From the NCBI GenBank assembly GCA_008973525.1, contig WACJ01000126.1, positions 620,001-684,000 on the forward strand: a stretch of DNA of 64,000 nt, written 5' to 3'. Below are positions 21,644 through 53,694 of this stretch, in pieces. Position 1 is the first letter of the stretch. Each line of letters opens with the position of its first letter. Source of the DNA: Stenopsyche tienmushanensis. Lineage: Eukaryota; Arthropoda; Insecta; Trichoptera; Stenopsychidae. The position numbers and the translations under genes were made by a program. Under the pieces are notes generated by a model that worked only from the letters and a program-made list of their open reading frames with translations, searched no databases and had not been told where the DNA came from.

Positions 21644-21731
21644 ATGTTTTGCTACCATTGCCCGCCCTCGCTGCCACCCCATCAGCACAGACTGCCGCAG
21701 ATTGAATACCCCTTCACTCCCACGCACCCCT
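21644..21731 (+). CDS. DRGX: DRGX coding exon 1 (N-terminus)
   Basis: Starts ATG in the context CGCGGCATGTT and encodes 29 residues beginning MFCYHCPPSLPP and ending TPTHP, plus one base of the next codon (phase 1). The start matches the conserved N-terminus of DRGX proteins, which begin MFYFHCPP in vertebrates. The Cys/His-containing hexapeptide followed by a Pro-rich stretch is typical. The donor is T|GTAAGT at 21732. The next exon begins with two bases that complete a Tyr codon. Confidence 0.85.
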
Positions 21732-22434
21732 GTAAGTAATCATCCCTTATTAAAACCAATTTATCAATCAGATAATACAACTACCGACATTTATACGAAG
21801 CTACTAAAACCGGTCAAAAGCGTTAATCTTTAACCATTTGATTAGTGAGCTAATTCTTGTAGTGTATGCGTTCCGGGACTGAGCTAATTTTTTTTATCGA
21901 TTCTTCATGCGTATAAAACTTCGATGAAAATTCAATTGAAACATAACAAAACAATAAAACAAATCGTAAATGTAATGTTTGATATCATAATTTGAATACA
22001 TTCTATTAGAAACACAAGCACGGCATTGTAAATAAAACGCTATGGAGCGTTGCCCTCAACATGTGCGTGCATACTCTACGTGTAAAAATATCTAATAATA
22101 GAATATTTTTTATATTTATTGATTCATCACATTCTTACAAAAGGAATTCCGTACTATGTATTACTTTTTGATATTACTAATTCATCTGGAAAGATGATCC
22201 AGAATCATGCTTGCCAAGATTTATCAATAACAACATAATAAGGAATTTATGCATTGCTAACAAAAATATTCAAATCAATTTTCATTCTAAATTTATTCCC
22301 ACAGGATAAAGTATATTATTAGGCACAAAAGAGATAAAATTTGTCACATTTCTTAAAAATCATAGTATATTCTAAAATAATATTTTTTGAATAAACGTTT
22401 CTTAAATGGCAGATATCAAAACAATTCATTTTTA
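21732..22434 (+). other. Start of DRGX intron 1
   Basis: AT-rich intron sequence with no repeat shared elsewhere in the window and no coding signal. Confidence 0.6.
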
Positions 22435-22436
22435 TA

Positions 22437-22896
22437 GGTCTTTACACAAAGACGCTCGATTTTTAAATGTAAATAAAACAAGTTGTGTGTGAGATATCCG
22501 ATTAATTTTTGCTCTTTTGGAAGAATATTTTATGACATGTATGGAATATAGTGTCGTTCTAATGTCCACCGCGTCTTTGCTTGGTAGCACGTATTCGGGA
22601 GGTCTATTTTCACGCAATGGCGCTTCGCCGTTGTCCGCTATGGCAATGTCAGTTTCGTTTTGAAACAAGTACGGGCCGATGATTCTGCCAGACAATTTTT
22701 CTCGTTCACAATTTCACTTATTCAAAAATAGGCCTCACGGTTAAAAATGATTTTTTAACAATTTTTTTTGAAAAAATCATTCATTTTCGTTACTTCCATA
22801 TATTATTGAAAATATTACAATAAATTTTATGGATGTTGTTTTAACAACCTGGTCGCTGTAACCAAACAAATTTTGAGCGTTCCTATTTAAGCAATC
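22437..22896 (-). mobile_element. Tc1-like family E deletion derivative in intron 1
   Basis: Ends GGTCTTTACACAAAGACGCTC and, inverted, GCTTAAATAGGAACGCTC resemble the family termini and start after TA. On the minus strand the transposase reads GRIIGPYLFQNETDIAIADNGEAPLR, the FWSGGIIGPYFFEN...VNGE core segment, fused directly to RPPEYVLPSK near the C-terminus. The central-to-late part of the catalytic domain is deleted at this junction. The same junction (NGEAP.. to PPEYV/PNACHQ) occurs in the copy at 37956, so they derive from one deleted progenitor. Confidence 0.75.
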
Positions 22897-22909
22897 ATGA
22901 CACAAAACG

Positions 22910-23265
22910 GAGAAAAACATGTAACATGTAGTAGAAATTTTAAAATAAAAGATGTCGCTATATTCCCTACCTCAAAGATTTTTTTTGTAAAATGGTGAAT
23001 ATTTAAAAAAAAAGTTGAAAATTTTTTGGTGTTATTTTTTTAGTTTTAATTTTTTAAAAATAGTTAGAAATAAATTTTTGACATAAATCTGGCAAGGACA
23101 ATAGAAGGTTATATAATAAAGGTTTATACTAAATTTGAAGTAAATTAATGTATTAAAACTTGAGATATCATGTCAACCGTGTTGAAAAAAGTAGATAGAA
23201 CAGAATTTTTAATAGAAAAAAATGTTTTTATTTTGGTCCATCTTTTTATACTATTTTGTATTTCT
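22910..23265 (-). repeat. repeat B fragment
   Basis: Inverse orientation match to the interior of 17423-18475 and to 33835-34330: the landmarks are the ATCTGGCAAGGACAATAGAA box, GATATCATGTCAACCGTGTT and a poly-A-rich core. No ends present. Confidence 0.65.
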
Positions 23266-23565
23266 TCGTTTAAAGCCATATTCATCATTAACTTTTGATT
23301 TTTCATGAAAATTTAATGTTTAATTGAAGAGCGCGAACATTAATAATTTGGAGCAGTGAGTAACCATGATGTGAAATGGGGATCTATTTAGGTCACGATT
23401 TAAGACAAAATGTGTTAATTTTCGATGTTTCCAATGTACAATATTCAGTCAAAAGACGTAATCTTAACGTGGATACATAAATGATTGAAATCATCAGTAT
23501 TGGCTTAACACGTTGATGAGGAATCCCGCATATGCTGCGAGGGGATTCAAATTGGAGACACACGT

Positions 23566-23760
23566 GTATTGTTTAAGTTTACACGAAGAAATGAACTTAT
23601 ATTGTATACTATCAACAGTGTTAAGGTTAATTTATTGATATACAAGATAAACTCACGTTGAGCGTTTCTGAGAGAAAATTGGATATGCGTGGACGATACG
23701 AATATAGCATCTACGTTTACGTTAATTTAAAATTAACTCACTAATCAAAGGGTTCAGTTA
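23566..23760 (+). repeat. dispersed repeat C, copy 2
   Basis: Carries TTTACACGAAGAAATGAAC, ACTATCAACAGTGTTAAGG, TTATTGATATACAAG and AGCATCTACGTT, in the same order as the copy at 7430. TTAACACGTTGATG about 60 bp upstream (23506) is a TTAA-type end that may or may not belong to it. Confidence 0.65.
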
Positions 23761-24260
23761 TTTTACTATCGTCAAAAGCTGAAACTAAAAAATCATCATC
23801 TAAAAATTGAATTTATTATTCATTGTTAAAAATGCACATAATTCTTATGCATTTTTTATGACTTTGGAATCTAATAAAAGTAAACCACAAAGTTTGATTA
23901 CATTAAAAATAACCACTTAAAATATGTATTTATTTTTGAACGTCCCTATCCCTGGTCTATTATTTTATTTCTCTTGAATGATTCAGTATATGATATGACT
24001 ACCAAATAAACAAATATCCATTCCATTAGTAGAATAACAACCGAAATCAGTGCGGAATAATCCAATCATGCGTTTCTATTATTTAGGAGCGAATGGGTAT
24101 TCTTGTGGAATCAAACATGGGGGTCAAAAATTATCTTATCCAGCGTTTCTCAATTATTTTCAAACTCACAATATTGACTATTTTAATCAAGATCATAATT
24201 AAAAGCGATGTTAACCATCAATTTATTTGCCATATTCATTGTTTTTCGCCGATGAATGCG
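23761..24260. other. AT-rich intron sequence
   Basis: No gene or repeat recognised. Confidence 0.5.
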
Positions 24261-24650
24261 AGATGTGTGATGTGATATAAACGGGGCTACGGGAATCGGA
24301 ACATTTGAAAAGCATTGTGTGCGATGACAAGGCCATGTGACAATGGGGTCGCTCATGCCCGGTGTGTTTGAAATCAATTTTCCGAGCAATTTGCTGCCAT
24401 ATAGGGTTGTTAACGAGCTGAACACCCAATGGCTAATTGGTCCAACGGCAAACCCAACCCCGACGACAATCAAATCATTGTTTTTCTTCACATTTATGCC
24501 GAGCCATGGGGTCGGCTACACCCCGACACCTTTGTCCGCATTTGTGATGCTAATCAAGATTGAAATTCGACATAAACCTATTTGCGACCGCGATGGAAAA
24601 GTAAAGACATTATGGGCACACCCCGATTCGAAATTGACACACCGAAAATA
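24260..24650. promoter_or_regulatory. Non-repetitive island in DRGX intron 1 (candidate enhancer)
   Basis: A 400-bp block markedly less AT-rich than its flanks, open for about 100 codons on both strands (24337-24651 plus, 24183-24491 minus). Two-strand openness without a recognisable domain fits constrained non-coding DNA better than coding DNA. The regulatory role is inferred from position and composition only. Confidence 0.3.
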
Positions 24651-24769
24651 ACACACTGCGTATAATAATTACAACATAATATTATATATTTAGGTTAATG
24701 GTTTTTGAATGTTTATTTTTTTTAATATCATCAAGCTCAAAAATAAATCTTCGCCGCAACGCAACATAC

Positions 24770-25369
24770 AGTGGGCGCGCACATTTTCGTAAGGAAGTAT
24801 ATATACGTCCTGCCCACCTGGCGTGAGTTTTTTTTAGCGATGCTTAGAATTTGTAAAAAATTCAATTAAACATATATTTTTTAATTTATTTAGATACATA
24901 AACTTATAGAGAAGTTAACAAATACAAAATAATAAACTCAACATTTTCTGGCTTTAGTTCCCTTTCATTTGTTCTTTGAAAATGCCCTTCAACTAAGCGT
25001 GAGGGTTTAGGTGTAATGCCGTTTTTTTGGTTGGCTTTTTACTGTGTTGTTTGAACTGAACATCAATACGTCTTTTTTGTCCTTCCGTTTTAAAACTATA
25101 AGTTTGCTTTTGAATCTTATCTTATACTATTAGTCACCACTTACTAAGTACACGTCCACCCCAACACAATAGCGAAGTGCAACCAATTTGCTACCTTCCT
25201 TAAAGTCATGTCAAAACATGTATCGATAACTCACACATTTGTTAAAAAAAAAAAAAGTTCCGCCTGCTTTAGGACTCAATGTATATCTCGAAGACGTATA
25301 TATACGTCCTAAATTTCGATGCAGCTTACATTGAACGTATATTTACGTCCTGCTCACTTAACAGGTTAA
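24770..25369 (-). mobile_element. piggyBac-like remnant
   Basis: Minus-strand translation near 25020-25110 contains KRKDKKDVLMFSS followed by a basic tail, which matches the WKDKRDVLMLST-type segment of piggyBac transposases. The decamer ATACGTCCTG recurs near both edges (about 24800 and 25342) in similar contexts, and a TTAA lies at 25366-25369, the piggyBac target. The frame is broken and both ends are uncertain. Confidence 0.4.
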
Positions 25370-26077
25370 TGAAATCCATTTAACTTTTAAATAAATTCAA
25401 CAAAAATCATCAAGAATGCAAAAAAAGTACAATTTTCGATAAAAATTACACCATTTATTGCCTTGTAAAATAAGTTGCAACCAAAAAAATATAAACACAG
25501 CCATTAAAACCACTCATTAATTATATCTAGAAGAAGTATACAAAATTTCAATAAGATTGGTGCATTAGTTTTTGAGAAATCATAGCCATCGACTTCAAAA
25601 ATAGATTTTTGAAAGAAAATCGAATAAAATGCGACATTTCCAGCCGGTCGATCCTATTGATCGGAATTTTAAAAGGCTCTCTTTTCTACAGTTTTATTCC
25701 GATTGACTTGAAATTTTGAGAAAATATTCTTGGCATTTTATACTATTAGATAAAATTTTGAAAATTTGGAATATTTTTGAATTTATTAAACTTATGTAAC
25801 CCCTTAATATGATTGTGATTAATGTTGATTTTTATGTAAAAGACATACTTTAAAAATAATTAAAACTTTAATTAACAATTTTAACATGATTATTAACCCA
25901 GTTTATTCAAAATTACATATATTTTTGTATAAAATATATGTAAATTTCATTAAAAAAAATTATTATCAAAAATACATTAATTATGCAATAGAAATGTTCT
26001 GTTGATTTTGGACATTATAGCTATTAAAATAAGCTCTATTGATAATATTTTGATTACATCGGTCCAAAAATAAAATA
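25370..26077. other. AT-rich intron sequence
   Basis: No gene. Long A/T-rich stretches, some resembling repeat B interiors (CGATTTTTGAAAGAAAATCG type) but not alignable by eye. Confidence 0.4.
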
Positions 26078-26149
26078 TTCCGGTACCGGGAATCGAACCC
26101 GAGCCTCCTGGGTGAGAGCCAGGTATCCTAGCCACTAGACCATACCGGA
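26078..26149 (-). tRNA. tRNA-Glu (CTC)
   Basis: The minus strand is a 72-nt tRNA with TCCGGTA/TACCGGA acceptor stem, anticodon CTC and an intact B box. It appears identical to the plus-strand copy at 11017. A TTTTATTTTT stretch follows it. It lies in DRGX intron 1, antisense to the host gene, 213 bp from the divergent tRNA-Ile at 26363. Confidence 0.95.
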
Positions 26150-26362
26150 TTTTGTTGGACAAAGTCGTTCAGACACACACATCGATTGGGTTCTTCCAGT
26201 CTAAAAATGGGTTTCTATATCTGTTTATTTGGGAACGATCCAAGTCTGATGTAACCACCAATTGCTGATAAACTTCAAGTATTTATTTTATTACTGTGAC
26301 GTTTAAATCATTCATATTTTTTAAATAAATCATATCCAAATGCAAAATACAGAACATCGCCA

Positions 26363-26436
26363 GGCCCATTAGCTCAGTTGGTTAGAGCGTCGTGCTAATA
26401 ACGCGAAGGTCGCGGGTTCGATCCCCTCATGGGCCA
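26363..26436 (+). tRNA. tRNA-Ile (AAT)
   Basis: 74 nt, identical in mature sequence to the copies at 13043 and 45705: GGCCCAT/ATGGGCC stem, anticodon AAT, canonical A and B boxes. A TTTATTTTA stretch follows, a weak terminator. Sits in DRGX intron 1 on the sense strand. Confidence 0.95.
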
Positions 26437-26569
26437 TGGATTTATTTTAGCAAATTTACATCTTAACTCTTTACATTTTGCCATTTAATCTATGCATATT
26501 CATACAATTCAAGTGAAAAATAATCAATTTTTGCATTTAACCACGCTGGTACACGCACCGCAGATTGAA

Positions 26570-26747
26570 AAGCACTGTTATTTTTAAATATATCGATGCA
26601 ATAAACTCTTTTTTAAGCTTCAGTGAAATTTCATTTCAATCTATTAGCTGCTTTTAGAATTATATCAATTTTACGATAAAAGTGTAATTTCATGATTTTT
26701 TTGCGAAATTCAGTTTAGTGCGGAACACCCGGACTGTAAAGTGTTAA
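26570..26747 (+). repeat. TTAA-type dispersed repeat H, copy 2
   Basis: Shares with 43093-43292 the series GCACTGTTATTTTTAAATAT, GAAATTTCATTTCAATCTAT, ATCAATTTTACG, GTTTAGTGCGGAACACCCGG and the end ACTGTAAAGTGTTAA. The TTAA end suggests a piggyBac-type non-autonomous element. Confidence 0.6.
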
Positions 26748-26749
26748 GA

Positions 26750-27060
26750 TTCTTCCCCGTCTCTGTTAAATATTTGAATACAGAAACAAATAGGAGTATC
26801 CATAATCGATCCGTCGTCTCGGCGGAGCCGCTTGCATTTTGCAGCATCAGTACTGACAGATGTAATCCTCCTAATTCGCGCTCCATCCCTTTGCTGGGGT
26901 CGAATCCTAGACTTGATCCAACACCCCAACGTTCTCGAGCTTTTGCTAGTTTATCATTTACTATGTATAGTTGATAATAATCATTTCGGAGGGGCGGTTA
27001 ATGCAATGCCATAACTATCAAACGCTCATAGGGCAGACGCAGCATTATCTCCAGACGCTC
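26750..27060. other. Less AT-rich island in intron 1
   Basis: Open frames on both strands (26741-26974 plus, 26744-26929 minus) but no domain. Not called as a gene. Confidence 0.3.
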
Positions 27061-27139
27061 ATCTTTTTTATTAATTTTGCTTTTATTAGCATTCTTGGCT
27101 TATTTTAAAATGATCTATATATCTTTGTCTTTCCGTCAG

Positions 27140-27223
27140 TGCTTCTGTCTACCCATTTACGCCAGCAGCTGCTTAACGGGGGAACCATATACCCCCAAGA
27201 GGCACGCGGCGCCTTATCGAGAG
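27140..27223 (+). other. Exon-like island in DRGX intron 1 (candidate cassette exon)
   Basis: An 84-nt GC-richer block preceded by a pyrimidine tract ending CCGTCAG and followed by GAG|GTACGC, i.e. plausible acceptor and donor. Its length is a multiple of three. Read in phase 1, as required between DRGX coding exons 1 and 2, it is open throughout (LSTHLRQQLLNGG part) and would turn the junction codon into Asp. A second frame is open too. DRGX family members do not need this segment, so it may be chance, an alternative exon or non-coding. Confidence 0.25.
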
Positions 27224-28284
27224 GTACGCATATTAATAATTAATATATTTCAATTTACATGTCTTTACAATACACCCCGTCTATAGCTTGAATTTAGTCC
27301 CAACCCTTTGACTGCCAAATATCGTCCATATCTCGCCCGTTAAAGACTACGGGTGTACGATGTCTTTGACAAATCACACAATTATCCATCGTAGACAATC
27401 GACCAATCAATCCATATATTGCATGTTATTAGAATTTTAAAATTTTGATCTAAAAATCCCTATAGGTTGCACCGATTTAGAGTTCCAATGGCAGTGTTTT
27501 AATTCAGTTTTTCACCATTTTATTGCATGCATAAACAAAGTGTATTAAATAATGATTACGGATTGAAATGATTCGTGAGATAAAACTATCGGTATCATCT
27601 TTTTGGAATCGAGATCCATAAGATTTTATTAGTAATTTAAATATTATGCACCCCATTCTTTCGTTTTCAATCTTTTTAGTGCTGAAAAACGATATATCGT
27701 CGATAGATACGTCTTGAGTAGCTTGAGTAGATCCTGGTTTTTTAATGGTCACTCGTTGTTTAAATTCATTATTAAACTTCAACATCAGAAATATTCATAA
27801 AGTCATAAAGTGCATGCCACGATTGACATTCTGCACGAACAATCTGAAGGCATAGTACAATAGATAGTATATACACTTAAACCTTTTTTTGTGCGGTAGA
27901 TGCGTTCCTTGGATTTTAAAAACCGCATAACTTCGAAACAGCTCTATAAAATATATTCAAAATCGCATAAAAAAAGTTAATAAAAAAGGAAAACAATAAG
28001 GCAATTAAAAAATAACATTTTTGATAACATTTAAAAGATCTCTTGAATCATTGGTAAAATTTTAAGGATGTCTGACATCTGGCATCTCAAATGCCAAACC
28101 TCCACTACAAAAAATGTATTATTTTGTTACTAAAATTGGAGACACATTTGTGCGGTTGGAGTCCCACAGGATATGAGGCTGGCAACCATATTCTTAAAAA
28201 CATATATATGCCATGAAAAAACCATGTCAAAAATGGTTTGTAATAGTCTCATAAAAAGGATTGCTTAAAGCCACCTCAAAAAAA

Positions 28285-28400
28285 AAGTGTATTGTTTATG
28301 TTTATGCGCAAAGAAGTGAACGAATATTATGCGCTATCAACAGTGTTAAGGTTCATTTATTGATATACAAGATTGAATCACCTTGCGCGGTTCTTGTAGG
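28285..28400 (+). repeat. dispersed repeat C, copy 3
   Basis: Contains ATGCGCAAAGAAGTGAACGA, GCTATCAACAGTGTTAAGG, TTATTGATATACAAG and TTGCGCGGTTCTTG. Nested inside the pogo-like structure; it stops where repeat B sequence begins. Confidence 0.6.
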
Positions 28401-28650
28401 AGCAACAGAGGGTTATATAAAAAAGACCTGTAACCATTTTGAAGTAAATTAATTAATTAAAACTAATGAGATATTATGTTAACCGTGTTGAAAAAAGTAG
28501 TTTCTAGAAAAACGCGTTAAAAGATTTCATTATGGTAGGGTATCGGCTAAGTTGCCGCGTCATCAAAATAGCTATAACTCCGTAAGTACTTAGAATTTTG
28601 GAAATTCCTTTGGAGAGTGTATTTTAAAAAGTCAAACATTAGAAAAATTC
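28401..28650 (-). repeat. repeat B fragments inside the pogo-like element
   Basis: Matches GTTAACCGTGTTGAAAAAAG and the GCCGCGTCATCAAAATAGCT segment found in 17880, 33960 and 40675. Confidence 0.6.
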
Positions 28651-29439
28651 AAAAAAAACGAATGATTTTTTTTGTGCGATTTTGAAGTTATGCGATTTTA
28701 TTAGAGATTTTTTATTTATTTCATATATAGTACGTATCGAGATATTTTTTATGAAATAGAAATAAATCATGAATACTAACTTAAATTGGGAATCGCTGAA
28801 TATACGACCACGCCCTTTTTTTTGTGTTTGGGATTATAGTGACATCTTTACTAATTATGAATTATATTGTGGAAAGATTAAATCTACACAGATCAAAGAT
28901 GCAAGACGTCCTATAAATTTTACCAAAAATGTTTTTTTTAATTGCCTTATTGTGTTCTTGTTTTTTTTCAACTTTTTTTATGCGATTTTAGATATATTTT
29001 ATATGGTTGTTTCAAAGTTTTGCGGTTTTTAAAATCCATGGAACGCATCTTCACTCTTTCAGCCATAGGTTTTTTTATGCGATTTCTTTTTGTGCGATTT
29101 TCCGCGGCACACATCTAACGCACAAAAAAGGTTTAAGTGTAAATGTACGCATTTTGCGAAAATTGTTGTTGTTCATAACTCTTCTGTTCATTTTTTAAAA
29201 TCCTATTGGAATGAATTATATGGCATCATCATGATCGCATAAATACCACTTCTGACACCAATGAAGCATAGTAGCGGGGACGCTTTCAGGCCAGAGTTAC
29301 GCGCGGGTTCGTTCTGCATCCGGGTCGAATAGAATGTCTCTCGATTTGTTTTTGAGTTTTTTTTAGGAAGTTTTAAAGATGAGTGGGTATTAAAAATAAA
29401 GTGCATTTAAAAAAATCGATACATATTTAATATATGGGC

Positions 29440-30260: not shown

Positions 30261-30292
30261 CGATAATAAAGCAATTTAAGTATATAACATGA

Positions 30293-30315
30293 ATGTTAGT
30301 CGATTCGACTAACAT
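30293..30315. repeat. 23-nt near-perfect palindrome
   Basis: ATGTTAGTCGA, one base, TCGACTAACAT: 11-bp arms around a single central base. Confidence 0.8.
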
Positions 30316-31395: not shown

Positions 31396-31746
31396 CTCGA
31401 CGGCTTGGAGCGCAAAACGCAGAATACCGACCTAGTCGAGAGTTGCACATGATTTTTGTTTTACTTAACTACTCTGCATTATACCATTTTTATAATATAT
31501 ACTAAGTTATCTAATCCTTATTTTCTCCATTATCTTTATATTCAGGAATGGCATCCGATCACGAAGCGCTCATTCGTCATATTAGCGGTCCGAAAAGCGG
31601 ACCGATTGAGCATACAAACCTTATGGCCACTTCGTCCTCTTTTAGGGCTTTTTGGAGCATTTTCTATAATTTGCACGATCACGGAAGCAACGTAGCGTCT
31701 AGACACTTTATATCATAGTTCCATACAACAGTAACCGCCATCTATG
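31396..31746 (-). mobile_element. mariner A deletion derivative, copy 3
   Basis: Minus-strand orientation of the 9196-type unit, complete from the tail side (CTTGGAGCGCAAAACGCAGA, CCGACCTAGTCGAGAGTTGC) through GGCATCCGATC, the palindrome CGGTCCGAAAAGCGGACCG, GATCACGGAAGCAACGTAGC to CAGTAACCGCCATCTAT. No transposase coding. Confidence 0.75.
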
Positions 31747-31779
31747 AGAGTTTGTAATCGTTTTGTAGACACGTTCAAA

Positions 31780-33350: not shown

Positions 33351-33354
33351 TATT

Positions 33355-37030: not shown

Positions 37031-37712
37031 ATTGGAAGAGCCTTCAATAGCGAATATTATATGGTGTTATTGATGGAAGAAATTGCAAAAAGAAAGAAGT
37101 TTGAAAGAAAAAATTGAAGTTTCTATTACATGTACACCTATAAAACTGATATAAAAACGTATTTTTGGCACTATCAACATCCACGCATGCATTAAATCGT
37201 ACTGTAGATTGTCATCGCAATATGTCGAAGCTATTTCAAGAATATATAACCACTTTAAAAATTGATGTTATTCAGATCTTAATTTATTCATCAGCATATG
37301 GCACCCTTTCAAATATGTCTCTGTATTAATCGGCTGTAGGATCGTTAGGGCGTGATGATACCCATATTAATTCGTCATTATGACGTCGACCTAATTACAT
37401 CGTTGTCCCTTTACGCTCATCGTCATGAATGATGTAGAGGCCTTCTTTGTCAAAGAGATATAGATTAACGATATTAGAGCAAAATGGGGTGTTTCTCCTC
37501 CTCCCCCGCTCCTGCGTCCAAATTTCATTATGTATTTATTTTCGTTGCAGATCAAAAGGGTAGACCCATTAGGGTCCAATTGAATTATCGATGCCCTCAT
37601 GATGGAGCGTTATTCTTTAATGCCGACCATCCCGTGGGTACTGGTCCGCTGGGAATGATCGAAGCTCTGAAATGGCCTGATATTCAAGGATTTTTTAAAT
37701 TTAACATTGCAG
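37031..37712. other. End of DRGX intron 1
   Basis: Mixed-composition DNA just upstream of coding exon 2. A 126-codon frame (37484-37864) runs through the exon but its upstream part precedes the acceptor at 37711-37712 and has no family counterpart. Confidence 0.4.
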
Positions 37713-37804
37713 ATACTTCCTACTCCTACCATCCGGCCATCCATGATGACACGTTCGTCAGAAGAAAGCAGCGGAGGAATCGGACCACCTTCACTCTGCA
37801 GCAA
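37713..37804 (+). CDS. DRGX: DRGX coding exon 2 (homeodomain start)
   Basis: Acceptor TTAACATTGCAG|AT; the first two bases complete the Tyr codon begun in exon 1. Residues 31-60 read YSYHPAIHDD, TFVRRKQRR, then NRTTFTLQQ. The DD-x-FVRRKQRRNRTTFTLQQ string is the DRGX signature before and at the start of the homeodomain (homeodomain residues 1-12: R5 at residue 53, F8 at 56). The RRKQRR stretch also fits a nuclear localisation signal. Donor CAA|GTAAGT, phase 0. Confidence 0.95.
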
Positions 37805-38827: not shown

Positions 38828-38929
38828 CTGGAAGAACTGGAAACGGCGTTCGCCCAAACACACTACCCAGACGTGTTCACCAGAGAAGACCTAGCAATGA
38901 AGATCAACCTGACAGAAGCAAGAGTTCAG
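38828..38929 (+). CDS. DRGX: DRGX coding exon 3 (homeodomain helices 1-3)
   Basis: Acceptor TGTTTCAG|CTG and donor CAG|GTCGGT, 34 codons, phase 0 at both ends. It reads [15 protein letters not shown], then [15 protein letters not shown], then ARVQ: homeodomain positions 13-46 with L16 and F20 core residues. [15 protein letters not shown] is the paired-class helix 1 to helix 2 sequence, and this exact version is typical of insect Drgx. The exon ends exactly at the 46/47 boundary, the conserved paired-class intron position. Confidence 0.97.
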
Positions 38930-43292: not shown

Positions 43293-45704
43293 TTGTATTT
43301 GTTGAATTTCATAACGTTCTTTTGATATACAAGATCTTTTTAGAACTATTACTTAATAAATCGAAAAAGATCGCACTTCAGATTAATTCCCATAGCAAAT
43401 TAACTAATAAGCATTTTATAAAACTTTTTTAAAAATTTGCGATTCAATATCACAACGTCCATGACATATGCGCCAATATTCCTATTAAAAATTATATAAA
43501 TTACACATTAATTTATATAATTCGCCCAATTGAAATATAAAAACTCAATGTTCAAATTAAAATTTTGACACACTAACGATGGGCACTGAGACGCGCAAAA
43601 TTTTCGTTTTAGGCGGCGAAATTGTAATATATCACAAATTCATCGCTCAATTGACGTGATGGGAAGAAAATAAATGCTAACCTCTAAGAAATGAAATTTC
43701 ATAAAAATCACAGAAAAATTTTGTTCTATTTATGGACCATACACATACGATATAGTTTTTATTTTCTATCTTTTTTGTAATTTCTTGTTAAAAGTTAACA
43801 TTTTGCCGTCATATTTAAACGTTCGATGCAATTCTTTTAATAAAAATTACCCCTGTGGATAGGTAATACTATATGTTTCGCATGACAGCACTAATCATAA
43901 GAAACCTTGTACTAGACGTCCCGCCTAAAATCTGTTAAGGAAAACATCCGTCTCTCAACTCCTTGTATTAGAATAATTGTTAGCGTTCTATTCGGAAACA
44001 TTTACTAAAAATAAATTTGTTCAAATGTAGTGCAATCAATTATATTAAACTTAATGATGAAAATTTTCGATGAAGCAAATTCAATTGTAAACCCGATTCT
44101 AGTGAGTTATCAATTGGATAAATTGCTCTTAAGAGCTTGCAAATATTAAGATTATTGCTCATGTCGTGATTATGCTAAACGAATACCATATTAAGGTTTC
44201 GGCTTTTTAAGTTAAGTGGAGCATGATGATAGCCGTTCTCAAACTTTTAAATTTGCGTACATGCGAGAGATTGCATTATTGCCGAATTAAGCTTCGGAAA
44301 GCCTCCACATGAAAGTTGTTGAGCTTTATTAGGCACTCAGGCTGCAGGAGCAACTTCCCTTAACATAATATGTGACGGGAAAATCCCGGAAAAGTTTGCT
44401 AAACATTTTAATGTATTAGACGAACGCCACGATCGACAGCAAAACACATTATTTTTATACGTAGCGTCTGGCAAAGGATCACTACTCCTCGTGGATCCAA
44501 CTTGTGATTAAAAATGAGTTTCGTATATTTTTTGATCGTGGTTGTATTTATGACACTTGGGTGTAGTGGGCATCCCAAATAACATAAGCGTAAGAAAAAA
44601 ATAAAATTCTATTAAGCGATCATATATAAGTTGCTTTGATCAGCTAAGACCGAAATAATCGACGAATTAAAAATAAAAAGCGTTCAAGTTAAGTCAATGC
44701 GTCTTCGCTTAATGACGGTGCTAAATATTAGTCTTCCATGATGGGATTTTCATCGTCTGGAGATTACATCTCGCAGTCCACTGCTCCATGGGGTGACATT
44801 AGGGGTTTTTCCAGTCGGTAAACACGTGACAGAGTTATGATGTATCAAATTCGTTTACGGGTAGGAAAGTTTGGCGAGAAGTTAATGGCGTATGTGCGAG
44901 TTTCTCGGAACAAGTTGTGTCTGGAGGAGCAGGGAGATTAAAGTGGCTAATGTAACGTCAATGTGTGGAGACACTTATCGTCTTTTTACGAGATTAAACT
45001 TCGTTATTACATTTTGTACATTTTCGCCAAAGAAACGCCATACGCTAAGTTGGCCGCTTACGAAATATTACGCATCAATTTTGTCCCTAATACCCCGTAA
45101 TTTCGCCCTAACTTCTCGGCGGCGTACAAGCGTGTATAATGAGCATTATACGGGATACTTACGATATTTACGTCGTCCTCGTACAACTTACGAAAAAATT
45201 AAGAGCAAGAAGCACTTGTATGAGCTACTTTTATTTTTGGCAATCCAAATTCTCCACGGCATTTGTTGTAAAAGCTCAAAAAAATAGCTCAAATTAAATC
45301 AAATGATCCATATTATGACCTAAAGAGGTCCTTATTTTTTAGTAAACACTCATAATTTCAATTTTTTACGGATATTTTATTAAATCAAAACGGTTTTTTT
45401 TAGATAAACGTTCAAGTCTTCGTTTTCTTTGGAACCGATTCTCATTTTTCAGTTCATTGTTTTGATTGCTCATTTGTCTCTGAAAATTTAGGTCAAAATC
45501 AACACACTATTTGTAAAGAAATGTACTCTCTCATATATTATGTGGTTTAAAATAGTGTTAAAACGTAATCTCTGCTATCACGCGTAAACGCGAGTCCGAA
45601 CCATAAAGTGTTAATATAAAATTTCGAATTTAGCTCGATCAATAAATGTGTGCTTTTAGCAATTTCTTCTTTTTAAATTCAATAAAATAATGCAAAAATA
45701 TATT
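43293..45704. other. DRGX intron 3, no supported gene
   Basis: Mixed AT-rich sequence. A 131-codon plus-strand frame at 44892-45287 (MCEFLGTSCVW... ) is the longest open frame here but has no recognisable domain. Its DNA has many TTACG/CGTAA words; it is discussed as a finding, not called as a gene. Confidence 0.35.
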
Positions 45705-45778
45705 TGGCCCATGAGGGGATCGAACCCGCGACCTTCGCGTTATTAGCACGACGCTCTAACCAACTGAGCTAATGGGCC
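45705..45778 (-). tRNA. tRNA-Ile (AAT)
   Basis: The minus strand is identical in mature sequence to the copies at 13043 and 26363, with intact A and B boxes. ATATATTTTT follows on the minus strand. It lies antisense in DRGX intron 3. Confidence 0.95.
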
Positions 45779-46198
45779 AGATGTGAGTCTAACAAAAAGT
45801 GATGATCACACAATTTTCCAAGTTATACGCGTTACTTTTATCAATTTTTATTATAATTCAAGTACAATAAAAAATATCTATTATTTGACTAACTTTATAG
45901 GACGTTCTTACTTTTTGAAGTTGCACTTGTATATGTGTAGTAAATTGACTGGAACGTCACGAAAAGTGAAACTCCGAGCTGTGACAGATGGTCAGAAATA
46001 GAAGGTGAATCGTTTGTATTCGTCGCATATATTATAAAGGCGCTAATACATCATACCCCCTCTACTGTGTGTGTGTTTCAATACGTAGCATAAAGCAACC
46101 ACTACACACTAGCAAGCCTATTTTATTATATATTACACAACACACAGTTACATCATTTAGTTAATAATTTCCGTTAAAAAATGGAAAAAAGCAATTGG

Positions 46199-46485
46199 CG
46201 TAGCGTGGGCGATTTACCATCCCCATCCCCAGCGCTGTTAATCTGAGCAGATTTAATTCGCCAGATTAACAGCGACATCTTCCGTTCCTCTTCAGGTGCA
46301 ATGTGTTATTTTAACAGCGCCATCTCTTGTGGTCCTGCAGAGACATTGCTCCTGCATACTGACGGATCGCTTCTTGCGCCTGCATTGTTGCCGGTTGGGA
46401 AGTGACGCGCAGGAGGCGGGAGTCGAGAAGAGTGGTCGGTTGGCCTTGACTGCGGGAAGATGTCCTTCTCGCAGCCAGATCTCTC
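46199..46485 (+). repeat. dispersed repeat D, copy 2
   Basis: Inverted match to 14485-14759. Carries a perfect 13-bp hairpin, CGCTGTTAATCTG (46233-46245) with CAGATTAACAGCG (46262-46274). The 165-codon frame across this region (46296-46793) spans the repeat and unrelated DNA, so it is not treated as a gene. A (CT)n run follows at 46482-46496. Confidence 0.75.
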
Positions 46486-46809
46486 TCTCTCTCTTGTGTG
46501 GAATAAATAGTTATTTAGAGAAGAGAGTCTTTCTATTCGACGCCCGTCTATTCCCATCCATTCAAATACAAATAACTACAAATAACTTTTTTGTAAAGAA
46601 AATACAAAATTTTTTTTTTCAAAGGATTTTTTTTTTGTTTCTCAATATAGTCATAGGTCGATTTACTTTTCTGACACCCATAGTCTTACCTGCATATGGA
46701 ACTGTTTTCGCCTTTTTTGAAGCCGATTCTCCTTTTTCAGTTAATTGTTTTGACTGTTCTTTTGTTTGTGTACATGCGGAGATCCGTTCATGAACGCAAA
46801 TCATGTGCT

Positions 46810-46975
46810 ATGGACATGTTCGGGTATGGCGTCCGATCGCGAGGCGTTCATTTATCGTGTCAGCCGTCTGCTTTTCGGACCGTTTGGACCTTGTGGCCAC
46901 TCCGTCCTTTTTTTTAGGACTCTTAAGGCCTTTTGCGTAGCTTTTATGATCTGTACAATCATGAAATCCCCCAAA
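46810..46975 (-). mobile_element. mariner A deletion derivative, copy 4
   Basis: TGGCGTCCGATCGCGAGGCG, CTGCTTTTCGGACCG, TGTGGCCACTCCGTCC and GATCTGTACAATCATG reproduce the unit in reverse with more divergence than copies 1-3. Confidence 0.65.
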
Positions 46976-47160
46976 GGCTAATTGTTTTACTAGGCTAATT
47001 ATGTTACAAAATCTAGCTAGTTTATCCCCCGCTAAATTAAGAATGAATGTGTCCTCGCGGACATGGATATTAAATTCAGGTTTTACACCTTGCTGTGCAT
47101 TTTTGTTGAGCGGAATGACATGCTCCCGGATTTCGGGATCAATAAGCAGCACGGGTCAAT
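46976..47160 (-). other. Part of a 114-codon unassigned frame
   Basis: A minus-strand frame (46808-47152, MLLIDPEIREHVIPLNKNAQ...) runs from this stretch into the mariner A copy. The first 60 codons are not low-complexity and I do not recognise them. It could be a transposon or captured host fragment. Confidence 0.2.
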
Positions 47161-47597
47161 GAAGGGTTCCTATGTTTCTTTGCTTCAGGTGTAAAATGAT
47201 GGACTCATATTTCATCTATGGTTATGAATCTGTTTTCGTTCCATTGTGAGCAAACGTGGTACCCATCTTGCACACAGCTTTCTCATGTGCAAATTTTTAG
47301 CCAATATGAGATTTATAGCATTTTTTGAAATGTCCAACATGTCTATTAGTTCGTGCATTTTCTGTCGAAGGTTATCCAATATCATTTTGTGGATTTTTTC
47401 ACCATTTCTGGCATAGTCACCAATGCTATGTTCATTTTGGCAGCTGGTACGGTTTCGTTTAAACCCTGCCACTCAATATTTTAATGTTGTAAACGAAGGA
47501 GCAGACTCCCCTAAAGTAGAAGCTAGCTCAACTTTGATATTGGTTGGACTGAGACCTATTTCAGATCGGGTACTTCTGAGACTATCTTCATAAAACA
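47160..47597 (-). mobile_element. mariner A with transposase N-terminal remnant
   Basis: The terminus GATCGGGTACTTCTGAGACT lies at about 47566, reading inward on the minus strand. The frame at 47212-47472 gives KRNRTSCQNEHSIGD, then DNLRQKMHELIDMLDISKNAI, then NLHMRKLCARWVPRLLT. This is the mariner WFxxFKxGRTSxxDE, second helix-turn-helix and conserved MRKLCARWVPRLLT linker. The catalytic domain is absent. Confidence 0.75.
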
Positions 47598-48539
47598 ATA
47601 TTCATTTCTACTGCGCGAGACTCTCACACATTTTTTTCCAAATTATCTAAAACCCTTTGAGCACTTTATTATTCAAATGGAACAGATCATCAATGCAGAT
47701 AATCCAATGAGTGTCTGGATTGACCTTCGGTCGCATTTCCAACGATGCCAAAACTTTTGTCCAAAACGCTAACTCTCTTAATTCTTGAATAACTTAATTA
47801 ACGTAGAGACTGAGACTACGTTGCGAAAGTGCACCAGCGCTCTTCATGAAAACGATATCGTTTGTTAATTGCATTTCCTTTGTGTTCCTTCTGTGCGCTA
47901 GACGTCCTCTGCAAAGGGCCCTTGTCATTCGCAAGTAGATTCCGTCTAGACTGAGATTCCTCATGTATCATTCTTATTTTCTTCCCGAAAATTAATTATT
48001 TCGACTCCTCTCCGCAAATTGAACCGTTTCCAATGCGCTCTAGCTTACGGCATTAGAAACAATGATTGAATCGGCGGGTTGTAAATTTAAAATGGCTCAG
48101 GGTAGCTGCGAGCACCCCATTTCGGTTGTGATGATAATGGCTGTAAATAAATAACAGGAGCGGCTCGTTTTTTGGACTTAATCCAATCTGACAACTTTAC
48201 ATGGGCGAGGGGGCGACTGTAATACCTGCTTAATTCCATTTGAAGGGGAACCCCAAAGATGAGCACAACTAGTCTTTGGATTATTTTCGCATTACTCTAA
48301 TCACGGGTCGTACCCAGTTCATTAACATACGATCGCACGACGACCTAATCAAATACGCATATATTTTTCCCTGATGGAATTCGAAGCAATATCAAATTAA
48401 GATAACCGAATTATAGCAATAAGATCGATGAAACTTCAGGAGATGGCAGCGTGATAAATGCACGGAAAGACAGTAAACGACGATCTTCATATTGATTTGT
48501 ACCATGGATGAATTATCATCTTAATGCAGTAGCGCTCTT
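47598..48539. other. Intron DNA, non-repetitive
   Basis: About 47860-48480 is mixed in composition with no repeat match and no coding signal; a possible regulatory island. Confidence 0.3.
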
Positions 48540-48670
48540 AATTTGTGTAGATTTAATTTGCCAGATTAACGGTAATATCTTCCTCTCCAATTGCGGATAT
48601 ATTGTGTCTGAAGGAACGACACCGATCGCTACTTGAGCGTCCACGTGTTTCATTGGTGTCAGAAGTGATA
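48540..48670 (+). repeat. dispersed repeat D, degenerate copy 3
   Basis: TGTGTAGATTTAATTTGCCA, GATTAACGGTAATATCTTCC, then CACCGATCGCTACTTGAGCG parallel 46245-46385. Confidence 0.5.
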
Positions 48671-49970
48671 TGCGAAGTGGTGCTAGTATCGTCCCAAATC
48701 TGAAAATTTTGCTTATTCATACATCCATTTATTTAAAAAAAAATAATGGGCTTCATCCCTAAATATTTGGTGAAATATTTTGAAAATAAAATTTAATAAT
48801 TTGCACACGTTATTTAATCTTGATTTAAGCTTTCGAATCTAGTTTTGACATTTTTTAAATTTTAATATAATAATAATTGGCTTAAGTTATGGATATCTTC
48901 ATTTTGAATGGATGCGATGGATCGTTTTATGCCACAGGGGTTAATTAATAATTTAAATGTATTTTTTGTCATATCCGGCTGACAGCTCTGACGTCTAAAA
49001 ATTTTCTTCACCCTAAGGTTAAGATTAGTCTCAGTTGCAGGGGAGACCAGTTGGCTTATATTGTGGTTACGATTTACGATTATCAAGTCCAATTTTCAAC
49101 CCCATTTGTCGAGGGTGGCGAGAATGAGCGTCGAGAGCGGAAGAGTTCCCTTTAAATATTTAAATAATCATTACCGAGCCGAATTTTTAGCCCGGGAATT
49201 TACTTTGGTAAATCTTCAGAATTTAATACAATCCAAATTTATTTATATCTGCTATATTCATTAATTTCATCAAATATAATAAGAAAAAATCAAAATTTCA
49301 TATTGATCATTTTTGGATGCGTGTCTTTGATACATGATCTTGCTTTGAAGCTCATGCCCAATATGGTTAATACAAATTGAGTTTGCACAAAGGCATCTTC
49401 AGCCTCACTTATTCAATCCACTCTGAAGCCTTGTATATCCAGCAACCCCTAGTTTCTTTGGCTTTAAAAATACTTTAAAAATGCACTCATCAAAAATTCA
49501 TATGCGCCTAGTATCGCTGATAATATTTTCCATATCCCATCACATTTTTCATCTCGCTACGCCCCGGAAGCTGCACCGTGGCTCAAAATGTGCAGGAAAC
49601 TTTTATGGCATCCATATACTGCGGTAACTTTTACGACCACGTAAACTATTGTTATAAACTGCAACTGCAAAAGACTTACTTGATTCGACTTTCAAACACC
49701 CATGCAACGACCTCATGATACACTTACATTTTTATGTCCATCTTCGCAACGAAAGCTCGGATATTTCATATCTTCATTGTTGGCAGCTCGATCATCTCAA
49801 ACGTGGATGGTTCGAGTGGCTTCTTATTGTTTTACGATCAGTTTTGGGCCGCGAGGTGATTTTGCGCAAAAAAATGTAGGGGGCGGTGGAACATTCCCTA
49901 TGGGGGCTTAGCCGCACACAAGGGGGTAGGGGAGTGCCTCGTTAAACCGCCATTAGCCCGGGGATATGGG
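48671..49970. other. Intron DNA, no gene
   Basis: AT-rich with a mixed stretch at 49560-49960. Open frames are short and without motifs. Confidence 0.4.
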
Positions 49971-49973
49971 GTT

Positions 49974-50073
49974 AAAAATTGACGTGCTCCCCGCGGATTC
50001 GAACCCGACATAAGTGCGATAGCGGTGGATTTGGATTGTAGGAATACACCTCTGCCACTACGCCGAGACTGCC
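49974..50073 (-). ncRNA. tRNA-like Pol III unit (SINE head or tRNA pseudogene)
   Basis: The minus strand contains an A-box-like TGGCAGAGGTG and a perfect B box GGTTCGAATCC about 50 nt later, followed within 30 nt by AATTTTT, a Pol III stop. The acceptor and T stems do not pair well, so it is not a working tRNA. A class II tRNA (Ser/Leu)-derived SINE head or pseudogene fits best. No second copy is visible in the window. Confidence 0.45.
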
Positions 50074-50295
50074 ACACAATATGGAAACAAAAAGCTTATA
50101 ATATATCATCGATCGCCTCCGAAAAATGAAAGCTGGCTTCATCAAAATGTACAACGATTGGCTTATTTTAAACAATATTCTACTCTTTATCAGGCGAAAT
50201 TAAAGCCTCGACATGTTCTTTTTACGCCGAGCATTCAATGAGTGTACTTGTGATTTAACAACATACAATACATTTAGTTTCTAAATTAAAAATAA

Positions 50296-50690
50296 GAGGA
50301 TAGTCCAAGAAGAATCCGACCTAATGCAGTTGATGTTTAAAAAAATACTACGGTAGAAAGTATCTTTGTACTGAAAGTATTGAACTGAGACCTTTCAAAT
50401 AAAAGTATCAGATATAAAACTTTTATTTGAAAGGTCTCAGTGCAATCCATATCAAAGCCAAGCTAGATTCAATTTTGGGGGAGTTTGTTCCTTCGTTTAC
50501 TACACTAAAATATTGGGTGGCAGAGTTTAAACGCGGCCGTACGAGTTGCCAAGACGAAAATACTATGCCAGAAATGGTGAAGAAAATCCAGAAAATGCAC
50601 ATAAAATTTGCACATGAGAAATCTGTGCTCAAGATGCATGCCGCGTTTACTCGTAATGGGAAAAAAACTGCGACGTGAGAATGTTTCAAT
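50296..50690 (+). mobile_element. mariner A with transposase N-terminal remnant
   Basis: The end GATAGTCCAAGAAGAATCCG (about 50300) corresponds to the family TIR. The frame from 50427 reads KGLSAIHIKAKLDSILGEF, VPSFTTLKYWVAEFKRGRTS, then KIQKMHIKFAHEKSVLKM. After a frameshift HMRNLCSRCMPRLL follows. This is the mariner N-terminal DNA-binding half. It is preceded by a perfect inverted duplication (50384-50441). Confidence 0.75.
50384..50441. repeat. Perfect 23-bp inverted duplication
   Basis: 50384-50406 and 50419-50441 are exact reverse complements (arm begins ACTGAGACCTTTC) around the 12-nt loop ATCAGATATAAA. The right arm is ordinary transposase coding sequence (FYLKGLS); the left arm replaces upstream element sequence, so the arm was probably copied by template switching. 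Confidence 0.9.
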
Positions 50691-50699
50691 GTTTGGCGA

Positions 50700-50930
50700 T
50701 GTTTCACACATGATAGAAAGTGTCAAAACGCTACGTTGCTTCCGTGATCGAATAGATCATAGAAAATGCCTGCAAAAAGACCTAAAAGAGGACGGATATT
50801 CAATTGGTCCGCTTTTCGGACCGCTACTCTGGAAGCTTCTTGATCGCGTCACTGAAGAAAGAACGCGAGAAATAGCATTCCCTGTTGCGCAACGCGTTTT
50901 TATCCATTTTCATTTAAGCAGACTTAGTGT
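50700..50930 (+). mobile_element. Chimera of mariner A unit and mariner J fragment
   Basis: From 50725 the mariner A block CTACGTTGCTTCCGTGATCG to CGGTCCGCTTTTCGGACCG is joined near 50825 to DNA encoding KLLDRVTEERTREIAFPVAQR, the N-terminus of the mariner J type. The junction suggests nested insertion followed by deletion. Confidence 0.6.
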
Positions 50931-50990
50931 TATCTAGCAGTAGGCAATAGTAGGCTGCATTCACTGTAATATTAATAAAAAGTGCGATGA

Positions 50991-51290
50991 TCAGATGTTA
51001 CATAAACACAGGTCAAGATCAAAGAAACTGGCAAATTTATCAAACACTTGGGACTTATTTAGAATAGCATAACTGAACTGTGCATCAAGTCTCCTTACAA
51101 TTTCACTTGATTTAACGCCTTCATTTACAAGAAAATGAATAATTACGCGTTGCACAACAGTGGATGCTATTTTTCGCCTTCTTTCTTCAGTGACGGGATC
51201 AAGAAACTTCATATCCGTTGGAATAAATGTATTTCTAATTAAGGGAACTATGTAGAAAAATAAGATAATCCATTTGTATTTTTATACATC
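50991..51290 (-). mobile_element. mariner J N-terminal half
   Basis: The 73-codon minus-strand frame begins MKFLDPVTEERRRKIASTVV and continues QRVIIHFLVNEGVKSSEI, then SKSQV-type NKSQVFDKFASF: the first helix-turn-helix of a mariner transposase (QRxVIxFLxxEGVKxxEIxxRL...SxSQVYDWxxRF). Upstream DNA to about 51290 matches 7800-7870. The rest of the element is missing. Confidence 0.7.
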
Positions 51291-51296
51291 GCTTGT

Positions 51297-51315
51297 TTTT
51301 TTTTTTTTTTTTTTA
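51297..51315 (+). repeat. Poly(T) tract
   Basis: About 18 consecutive T residues at the boundary of the mariner J fragment. Confidence 0.9.
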
Positions 51316-52652
51316 TTATATTTGAATCACTCTCTTATATTATACATAAGTTATTGATAAATGGGAAGAAACTTGTTCATTATTATAATTCATCAATTAT
51401 GCTTCATAATTTCGTAGAAAACAGACAGACATACATTCATTTTTGTTATTTTGTTTAGATTAAATAAGGGTTAAAGAAAAAGCTCAAGCACATAAGCGCC
51501 TGCGACTCACTGATGAGTCGCTATGTTTCTTCACAGAAAAAAAACTTATTGTTTTTTAATACCTAAACGTTTTTATACTTAATAATAGACCTCGGTCTTG
51601 TAAAAAATTGTTCTTATTAGTATCATTAGTAAATTGAAAAAACCCCTAAATAAAAAATCAATTTTAACCCACTCCTTCCAATACTTTGTGGAGATTCGAA
51701 GGATTTAAAGAATGCTGTCCAACTGAAATTACAAAATTAACTGGAGGTTGCTAAATTATAATAAATGATCATACACGTGATACTTTATCAAACCGCCCCA
51801 GTCAACACCCCAATCTCCAATTGTTATTCGCATATAATTAGCAGCGTAAAGCCTGCCCAGATGTCTCCAGTTGCCCTGCCCCAATTACGAGCGGTGCATT
51901 TTTATCCAATAAAGACTTCAAACCTGCCAAACAATTAAGTTACAATGTAACAATTGAGATCGACCGCTCTCCATCCGGCGATAAGCATCTGTGTTTCTTG
52001 TTGCTCTTTAGTTTCTACTTTTTGCGCCCGATTTGTGGGGCTTATTCGATGGGGGCTGTTTTTTATGCGACGAGCCCTCGCCGAATAAAAGTGGGACCAT
52101 AAACGGGACATAAAAGGGGGTGATCTCGATTGTTTGCTCTTGTCGCGGGGAATAAACACAATCTGTGCAAAGCATTATTGTTGTCGGTTTCGAGTGTTTA
52201 TTTTTCTTCGTTTTGTTGGGTTCTCTTGCAGTTCAGGGGGCTTCGAGTGTGGCGTGCTTAATTGCGCGCGACATCGATACTTAAAATTTAACAGCTCAAC
52301 CTTTCTCTAAAAATATCTATATGAAATAGTTTTACGGAATTTCATAAGGTGTATCAAATACATATCATGGTAGCGCACTGGTGTTTTTTTTTTGTACGAT
52401 AAGACAAAGATTAAAATCCAGACACTTTATGGTCTAACGTCTCTGGAACGCGACGCCATATGGACAAATGAGATTTTAATTAAAGGTAAACATGTAATCG
52501 TAATTGTTTGTTAAGATAAAATGGACATTATCGTCGTGCTCTCAATTATGTCTCTGCATGGGCGCGTAACTTCATCTCGGAAGACTGGCGACATCGTTTA
52601 ACCCTAGCATACCACTCAATGTATTTCGATTAATTTCAATTTGTATTTGCAG
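51316..52652. other. End of DRGX intron 3
   Basis: AT-rich, then a less AT-rich, non-repetitive block at about 51790-52300 shortly upstream of coding exon 4. No gene. Confidence 0.4.
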
Positions 52653-52769
52653 GTTTGGTTTCAAAATAGAAGAGCGAAATGGAGGAAAGCTGAAAGACTG
52701 AAAGAAGAGCAGCGGAAGAGAGACGGCCATGATGTCATGGGCAAGCGAGAAGATATTAAAGAAGACAAG
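52653..52769 (+). CDS. DRGX: DRGX coding exon 4 (recognition helix end and linker)
   Basis: Acceptor TTTGTATTTGCAG|GTT and donor AAG|GTATTA; 39 codons, phase 0 at both ends. It begins VWFQNRRAKWRKAE, homeodomain positions 47-60, with the invariant W48, F49, N51, R53 and Gln at position 50 (residue 98), the DNA-specificity residue of Q50 paired-like factors. The tail RLKEEQRKRDG is shared with insect Drgx. An alternating acidic and basic stretch follows (GKREDIKEDK). Confidence 0.97.
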
Positions 52770-52828
52770 GTATTATTTATAAACACAATAAAATAAAACA
52801 AAACAAAAATAAAAACCAACCATAACAA

Positions 52829-53249
52829 CAACACTCAATAAGTTCGTAGGATGACTAATGAAATAACATTTTGATGCCTTTTTTGTAGAACGATTTATCA
52901 TTGACCTCAAAATAGGCTTTCCCTGATGACGTTTGGAGTGTAGTGATGGATCCATGTTTCATCCATCATCAAATATCGCATGAAAAACACTTTTATTGTA
53001 TCGAAACAGCTCCAAACAGCGCTCCGAATTGTGGACGCGTTGTTGTTTTTGATTGACCGTAAGCAAACGCAGTGCTGTCTTCGCACAAAGCTTTCTCATT
53101 GACAAATGTTGATGCAAATTGTGAACTAAACATCAGATTGTTTTGAAATTTTGACATGTATTATTTGTATATTGATATTTCTTAAAAAATATATGGCTTG
53201 TCAATTGTGGCGTCAACTATATGTCATCCTACGTACTTGTTGAGTGTTG
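52829..53249 (-). mobile_element. mariner F deletion derivative filling DRGX intron 4
   Basis: Terminal inverted repeats of 27 bp with two mismatches: 52829 onward CAACACTCAATAAGTTCGTA and its mirror ending at 53249. The minus strand encodes a RYLMMDETWIHHYTP stretch, which carries the first catalytic Asp region, followed by FEVNDKSFYKKGIKML near the C-terminus, so the middle of the transposase is deleted. The element occupies 421 of the 548 bp of this intron. TA dinucleotides lie close to both ends but the exact target duplication is unclear. Confidence 0.85.
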
Positions 53250-53317
53250 CTTTATAAGATTTTCTTCATCATTGCTACTTATAATTTGTTTTTAATCATA
53301 ATTATTCGATCCCTCAG

Positions 53318-53517
53318 ACGGATGACGGTCGTCTGACATCTTCACCTGAAGTGTCTGCAGTGGATGACGATCAAGATATGGAAGCTGAACAACGCAGCGA
53401 GAGTACAGGTCGTGAGCCTGTTAGCCCTGTAGGACGTCCAGATACTGCAGGGCCTCCAACAGCATCATTATCGGCTCAAGGAAGCGAGCCTGATGATACT
53501 CCATCTCCATCATCCAG
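53318..53517 (+). CDS. DRGX: DRGX coding exon 5 (acidic, Ser/Pro-rich region)
   Basis: Acceptor CGATCCCTCAG|ACG and donor AG|GTTAAA; 200 nt, in phase 0, out phase 2. Encodes TDDGRLTSSPEVSAV, DDDQDMEAEQRSES, GREPVSPVGRPDTAGPP and SEPDDTPSPSS. It is a disordered acidic and Ser/Pro-rich region such as follows the homeodomain in many paired-like factors. Reading continues openly past the donor, but the 72-bp intron removal keeps frame into the next Pro-rich exon. Confidence 0.85.
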
Positions 53518-53589
53518 GTTAAACTCGATCAATTCGTATTTAATGATAAACAATTTGGGATGAACCATTAAAAATGGATATTTTAACAG

Positions 53590-53694
53590 GACATTGGGTA
53601 GCGGAAGCAGGCCACCTTCTCCGGGATTACCACTTCCTCCGAGGCCTACGTTGCCACCCTTCCCGGCGCATATGTTTTCAGGATTTGCCGACAG
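53590..53694 (+). CDS. DRGX: DRGX coding exon 6 (Pro-rich), gene continues
   Basis: Acceptor TTTTAACAG|G completes an Arg codon (AG+G). 34 full codons read TLGSGSRPPSPGLPLPP, RPTLPPFPAHMFSGF, AD. Donor AG|GTACGT leaves phase 2. Proline-rich, likely part of an effector region. The next exon was not identified in the remaining 10.3 kb; expected downstream features are further low-complexity sequence and, in most DRGX proteins, an OAR-like motif. Confidence 0.85.

What the first reader, a model, noticed from the sequence alone, without database searches (positions are those of the whole stretch)
21644..53694. Complete phase-consistent reading of a split DRGX homeobox gene
Six coding exons, each with canonical AG/GT borders, join without any frame conflict into the DRGX N-terminus, a full Q50 paired-like homeodomain and a Pro-rich tail. 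The gene spans over 32 kb with introns from 72 bp to 16 kb. No single open frame reveals it; it must be read across introns.
Basis: partly seen in the sequence, partly recalled or inferred. Interest (0 to 1): 0.75.

Follow-up and report, generated by a model that had tools for sequence, protein, structure and literature searches.

The report
Insect DRGX homeobox gene, cut off
This is most of an ordinary insect DRGX gene, a homeobox regulator of sensory neurons in other animals; its six exons were read correctly, but its last two lie about 33 to 35 kilobases past the end of the window and a likely extra first exon lies near the window's start.

Summary
The six exons are real, with the stated borders and consistent phases. 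The joined protein's best match is a named insect DRGX (E 4.0e-79); its homeodomain is identical over 60 residues to 16 of 120 listed proteins. "Complete" is wrong: exon 6 ends at a donor in phase 2 with no stop. Two more coding exons lie outside the window at C126:716538-716656 and 718993-719330, after a 42.8-kb intron. They add the conserved tail, the OAR motif (28.5 bits, cut-off 20.1) and the stop: 386 aa, 8 exons, 77.7 kb. Six of seven junctions are the best in-frame GT/AG choice nearby against 37 DRGX proteins; the edges of the 72-bp intron are not settled. A conserved upstream exon probably ends at 2218 (IIFSDGNK|gt), with an in-frame acceptor before 21620; 7 moth-type, one fly and one beetle protein carry a like peptide. 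Translation there is open: no in-frame ATG. A protein tree (92/96) and assembly size suggest the caddisfly Stenopsyche tienmushanensis (inference). An ordinary new ortholog; copy number untested.

The parts
2163..2218 (+). Candidate upstream exon (exon 0), 3' part: LKVGSPANPAVIIFSDGNK, then donor gtatta. Its 5' edge is unknown (the only AG before the peptide is at 2166-2167); in-frame TGA at 2160-2162, no ATG inside
   Evidence: IIFSDGNK at 2195-2218 is the best of all 8-codon words on both strands of 124 kb against three relatives' peptides, and the only one scoring above 15.3 that is followed by GT
21620..21643 (+). Exon 1, stretch before the ATG (VSGAAGRG in frame), behind acceptor ttttcag
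   Evidence: like GRG stretches precede M or L FCY in 18 moth-type proteins and 3 others
21644..21731 (+). Exon 1, coding from ATG (MFCYHCPP box)
   Evidence: tblastn with 11 relatives
37713..37804 (+). Exon 2 (start of the homeodomain)
38828..38929 (+). Exon 3 (middle of the homeodomain)
52653..52769 (+). Exon 4 (VWFQNRRAK, end of the homeodomain)
53318..53517 (+). Exon 5 (variable linker)
   Evidence: 3' edge less sure
53590..53694 (+). Exon 6 (Pro-rich, PPFPAHMFSGFAD), ends in phase 2 without a stop
   Evidence: 5' edge less sure
53695..64000 (+). Part of intron 6 (42,843 nt in all) that lies in the window; exons 7 and 8 follow outside at C126:716538-716656 and C126:718993-719330

Best explanation
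The finding is the 5' and middle part of a DRGX (dorsal root ganglia homeobox) ortholog of an insect, most likely a caddisfly. Shown by sequence and homology: at least eight coding exons over 77.7 kb, encoding 386 residues: an N-terminal MFCYHCPP box, a PRD-class Q50 homeodomain split over exons 2-4, a variable Ser/Pro linker, a conserved GFRP...PPLFFPPHL...CSCCP block and an OAR motif. Inferred from the family: it is a sequence-specific transcription factor that helps specify sensory neurons; nothing functional was tested. Inferred: an exon 0 about 19.4 kb upstream is spliced to the acceptor before 21620; here it is more likely an untranslated leader than a translated extension.
For: Exons and phases. 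Best hits named insect DRGX. Homeodomain 60/60 to 16 of 120 listed proteins. All 11 relatives used match both downstream exons. Homeodomain and OAR motif over the Pfam cut-offs in the joined protein; the OAR exon is also found by a genome-wide search, 32.8 bits at C126:719076-719132. Six of seven junctions rank first. Identity 59-68% to five relatives. Exon 0. Sensory-neuron role of Drgx in vertebrates and gastropods: PMC3660236, passages.
Against: No transcript was seen. Junction 5 ranked 8 of 10. The junction test uses a profile of the same kind of relatives that led me to the exons, so it is not independent of them. Some relatives with near-identical homeodomains bear other names. Copy number in the genome was not tested (request not answered). 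For exon 0: only 7 of 18 moth-type proteins and 2 of the other retrieved proteins show the peptide, and the last protein search returned moth-type proteins only.
Confidence: 0.95

Rival explanations
1. It is another PRD-class gene (aristaless/ARX, PRRX, PHOX2 or ALX) rather than DRGX.
For: The homeodomain is 50/60 identical to fly aristaless, the best chain in the PDB; several close relatives carry PHOX2, Rx, Crx, Otx or Pax-6 names in their sources.
Against: 60/60 to 16 and 59/60 to 41 of the 120 listed proteins; the MFCYHC start and the OAR tail align with named DRGX proteins.
Confidence: 0.02
2. The gene has a short form that ends within the window, for instance by keeping the 72-bp intron (stop after SSRLNSINSYLMINNLG) or by reading past exon 6 (FADRYVS, then stop).
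For: Both frames meet a stop soon after the exon. Three moth records, P0010, P0011 and P0013, end just there at FSPFDQ.
Against: The conserved tail exists downstream and fits in phase; most of the best-scoring full-length relatives include it. The short moth records may be incomplete gene models.
Confidence: 0.1
3. Degraded copy (pseudogene).
For: The introns hold many dispersed repeats, nothing more.
Against: All eight exons are open, in phase and canonically bordered; the homeodomain is unchanged.
Confidence: 0.01

Closest known systems
Beetle DRGX proteins (e.g. Zophobas morio P0002, Ignelater luminosus P0035)
   Same: MFCYHCPP start, homeodomain 59 of 60, PPLFFPPHL and CSCCP blocks, OAR motif; 68% and 64% identical overall
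   Different: Linker length and sequence; PPHQHRLP after the N-terminal box where beetles have HPGA-type sequence; a repeated LQG stretch after the OAR motif
Moth DRGX proteins (e.g. Bombyx mori P0122, Achroia grisella P0017)
   Same: CPPSLPPHQHRLP, the upstream peptide, position as sister group in the tree
   Different: All 18 moth-type proteins have Leu for the usual start Met, which is kept here; the moth CSCCP region is changed
Fly aristaless (PDB 3a01)
   Same: PRD-class homeodomain with Q50, 50 of 60 residues
   Different: 10 of 60 positions; the chain holds the homeodomain only, so the rest was not compared

Membership tests
DRGX (PRD-class homeobox) | Homeodomain closer to DRGX than to other PRD families | tested here: met
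   60/60 to 16 of 120 listed proteins; aristaless 50, ALX4 46, PHOX2B 46
DRGX (PRD-class homeobox) | Q at homeodomain position 50 | tested here: met
DRGX (PRD-class homeobox) | N-terminal MFCYHCPP box of arthropod DRGX | tested here: met
DRGX (PRD-class homeobox) | C-terminal OAR motif | tested here: met
   28.5 bits, cut-off 20.1; found only in exon 8, outside the window
DRGX (PRD-class homeobox) | Expression in sensory neurons | not testable with these tools
   no expression data
DRGX (PRD-class homeobox) | Place in a tree with ARX, PRRX and other PRD families included | not tested
   the tree holds DRGX-type proteins only
Aristaless/ARX, PRRX | Homeodomain closer to that family than to DRGX | tested here: not met
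   aristaless 50/60; PRRX2 85.5 bits against aristaless 107; ARX itself was not among the 24 chains listed

The most novel reading that the evidence does not exclude
Insect DRGX of the Holometabola carries a conserved upstream exon (KIF[S/T]D-N-K followed by a Gly/Ala-rich GRG stretch) that is translated as an N-terminal extension, so that the start methionine usually annotated (MFCYHCPP) is internal. In this insect the extension would need a further upstream exon or a non-AUG start.
Probability: 0.3. Interest if true: 0.35.

Novelty: new member of a known kind. Interest (0 to 1): 0.2.

Why it matters
It adds a probable caddisfly ortholog of a known neuronal regulator. It also shows that the gene is more than twice as long as the window reading suggested, with its OAR motif outside the window. 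The conserved upstream exon raises a small, testable question: where translation of insect DRGX begins.

Tried and rejected
Region search with the own protein headed by the candidate exon 0 (residues 1-45): 7 candidates, none at E <= 10. The last protein search, with a joined moth and fly N-terminal piece as the scored region, returned 7 proteins among 266 candidates: six named Lepidoptera and P0016, unnamed; nothing from other orders (the Drosophila record P0102 is too short for that search's length limits).

A counterpart of the start shared by the Bombyx and Epargyreus records (MQIEL.ERSVRDR) was sought in 124 kb: the best match is downstream on the other strand, and I count it as none. The sigma-70 promoter scan around exon 0 says nothing for an insect.

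An alternative start in the open frame before exon 2 (37478-37712) was considered and dropped: the listed relatives that start at exon 2 (P0064, P0066, P0079, P0091, P0092, P0096) have starts unlike one another (read by eye).

Pfam on nine other open frames of the window gave nothing over a cut-off. The mitochondrial COX1 was found and translated but not used to name the species.

Literature: Drgx with homeobox and Drosophila, with Bombyx, and with Trichoptera gave 14, 2 and 0 papers. Passages of four papers were read; none of the passages mentions the upstream exon, but no whole paper was read.

Full report
What was checked. I read the six exons again from the sequence. Acceptors of exons 2-6 are AG, donors of exons 1-6 are GT, all phases join, and the 704 joined bases give 234 residues.

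Identity. The protein search gave 7618 matches at E <= 0.001 among 7923 candidates scored (a capped list); the best 120 are shown. The nine best each bear a DRGX name from at least one source (best E 4.0e-79, Anthonomus). Lower rows include other PRD names (PHOX2A-like, Rx, Crx, Otx, Pax-6), most likely automatic naming. The 60-residue homeodomain is identical in 16 of the 120, one residue off in 41, two off in 27. Eleven rows score 49 or less; several of these look cut off inside the homeodomain, and P0117, named PHOX2A-like, scores 45. Fly aristaless scores 50, ALX4 46, PHOX2B 46. Among 24 solved chains at E <= 1e-15 the best is aristaless (107 bits); ALX4 has 97.6 and PRRX2 85.5; ARX is not listed. 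In humans DRGX is the only member of its family, with a Drosophila ortholog (PMC2211742, passages).

The gene is not complete in the window. Exon 6 ends in phase 2 at GTACGTG with no stop, while the 12 relatives fetched are 355-405 aa. I fetched 40 kb downstream and 20 kb upstream and searched window and flanks with 11 relatives: all 11 match a block within window-frame 96521-96658 and all 11 a block within 98887-99324. The joins are exon 7, C126:716538-716656 (119 nt), and exon 8, C126:718993-719330 (338 nt, ending TGA), after introns of 42,843 and 2,336 nt. Phases fit, and AATAAA or ATTAAA signals follow the stop. The joined protein has 386 aa, with homeodomain (86 bits) and OAR (28.5 bits) over the Pfam cut-offs, and is 59-68% identical to five relatives. 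A genome-wide OAR search lists this exon at C126:719076-719132 (32.8 bits), one of 8 matches over the cut-off; 4 of 14 control genomes also rang, none over the cut-off. Whether the genome holds a second DRGX was not tested: that request did not complete.

Splice control. For each of seven junctions I took every GT/AG pair within 90 nt of the chosen sites that keeps the frame without a stop, and scored the whole protein against a profile of 37 DRGX proteins. The chosen pair is first of 8, 12, 35, 4, 8 and 6 at junctions 1, 2, 3, 4, 6 and 7. At junction 5, the 72-nt intron, it is 8th of 10 (503.6 bits, best 506.8), the segment being variable. I still prefer the chosen acceptor for its ttttaacag signal; that is judgement. 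The profile is made of the same kind of relatives that pointed to the exons, so the test is not independent of them.

Upstream exon. In all 18 moth-type proteins retrieved with this region (17 named Lepidoptera and P0016, unnamed) the Met of MFCYHC is Leu, so translation there must begin upstream. Seven of the 18 show KIFSDANK-LASGGGGGRG-LFCYHC; the other 11 have unlike upstream letters, probably other model starts. Of the rest, a Drosophila record has KIFTDGNK-LGPAAAGRG-MFCYQC and a Popillia beetle record TIFGDTHK-IASGGGRG-MFCYHC; 61 of 123 retrieved proteins simply start at MFCY. Here an acceptor ends at 21619 and VSGAAGRG runs in frame into the ATG. At 2195-2218 lies IIFSDGNK, followed at once by GTATTA, in the matching phase. 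Scored against the three peptides on both strands of 124 kb, this word is first (26.0, next 22.0) and the only one above 15.3 followed by GT. I hold exon 0 as probable (about 0.85). Against its translation here: TGA at 2160-2162 closes the frame, no ATG lies between it and the donor, and the moth start peptide has no clear counterpart in the 124 kb. The relatives' gene models may also be wrong, and the last search returned moth-type proteins only. Hence 0.3 for a translated extension.

Which insect. In a tree of 35 DRGX-type proteins this one is sister to the 10 moth-type rows with 92/96 support, just under the tool's own mark for a firm branch; 16 of 32 inner branches are open. The best-scoring single hits are beetles, probably because moth tails have diverged. 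The published Stenopsyche tienmushanensis assembly has 451,494,475 bp (PMC6302954, passages), 35 kb more than this genome. The caddisfly identity is an inference (about 0.85); COX1 was found but not compared.

How it probably works. By family knowledge it is a DNA-binding transcription factor of sensory neurons: Drgx, with Brn3 and Islet1, marks mechanoreceptors in vertebrates and gastropods (PMC3660236, passages). Drgx is among the homeobox families listed for Lepidoptera (PMC9977156, one passage). Nothing functional was tested.

Verdict. A real, ordinary DRGX ortholog, correctly recognised, cut off by the window on its 3' side and with a probable missed 5' exon.

Noticed in passing
5161-5232(-), 11017-11088(+), 13042-13117(-), 26078-26149(-), 26363-26436(+), 45704-45779(-); L009:7276-7351(-): Six tRNA genes in the window (3 Glu, 3 Ile; that at 5161 is weaker, 41.2 bits) and one more tRNA-Ile in intron 6. 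If exon 0 is real, all seven lie inside DRGX introns.
   Followed up: partly
9381-9560, 12133-12283, 31484-31719, 60012-60107, 62874-63093; also 47212-47472(-), 50605-50937(+), 60238-60513(+): Dispersed repeats within and beside the introns. Some reading frames look to me like decayed mariner transposase (recalled; Pfam gave no match over a cut-off).
   Followed up: partly
37478-37712 (+): Open frame running into exon 2 without a stop for 78 codons, with its own ATG codons; an alternative start is possible, but no relative supports it (by eye).
   Followed up: partly
C126:719150-719195, about (outside the window, exon 8): Run of LQG repeats just behind the OAR motif, not seen in the five relatives.
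   Followed up: no
C126:714028-714474 (+), in intron 6, outside the window: Unidentified open frame of 149 codons inside the long intron.
   Followed up: no
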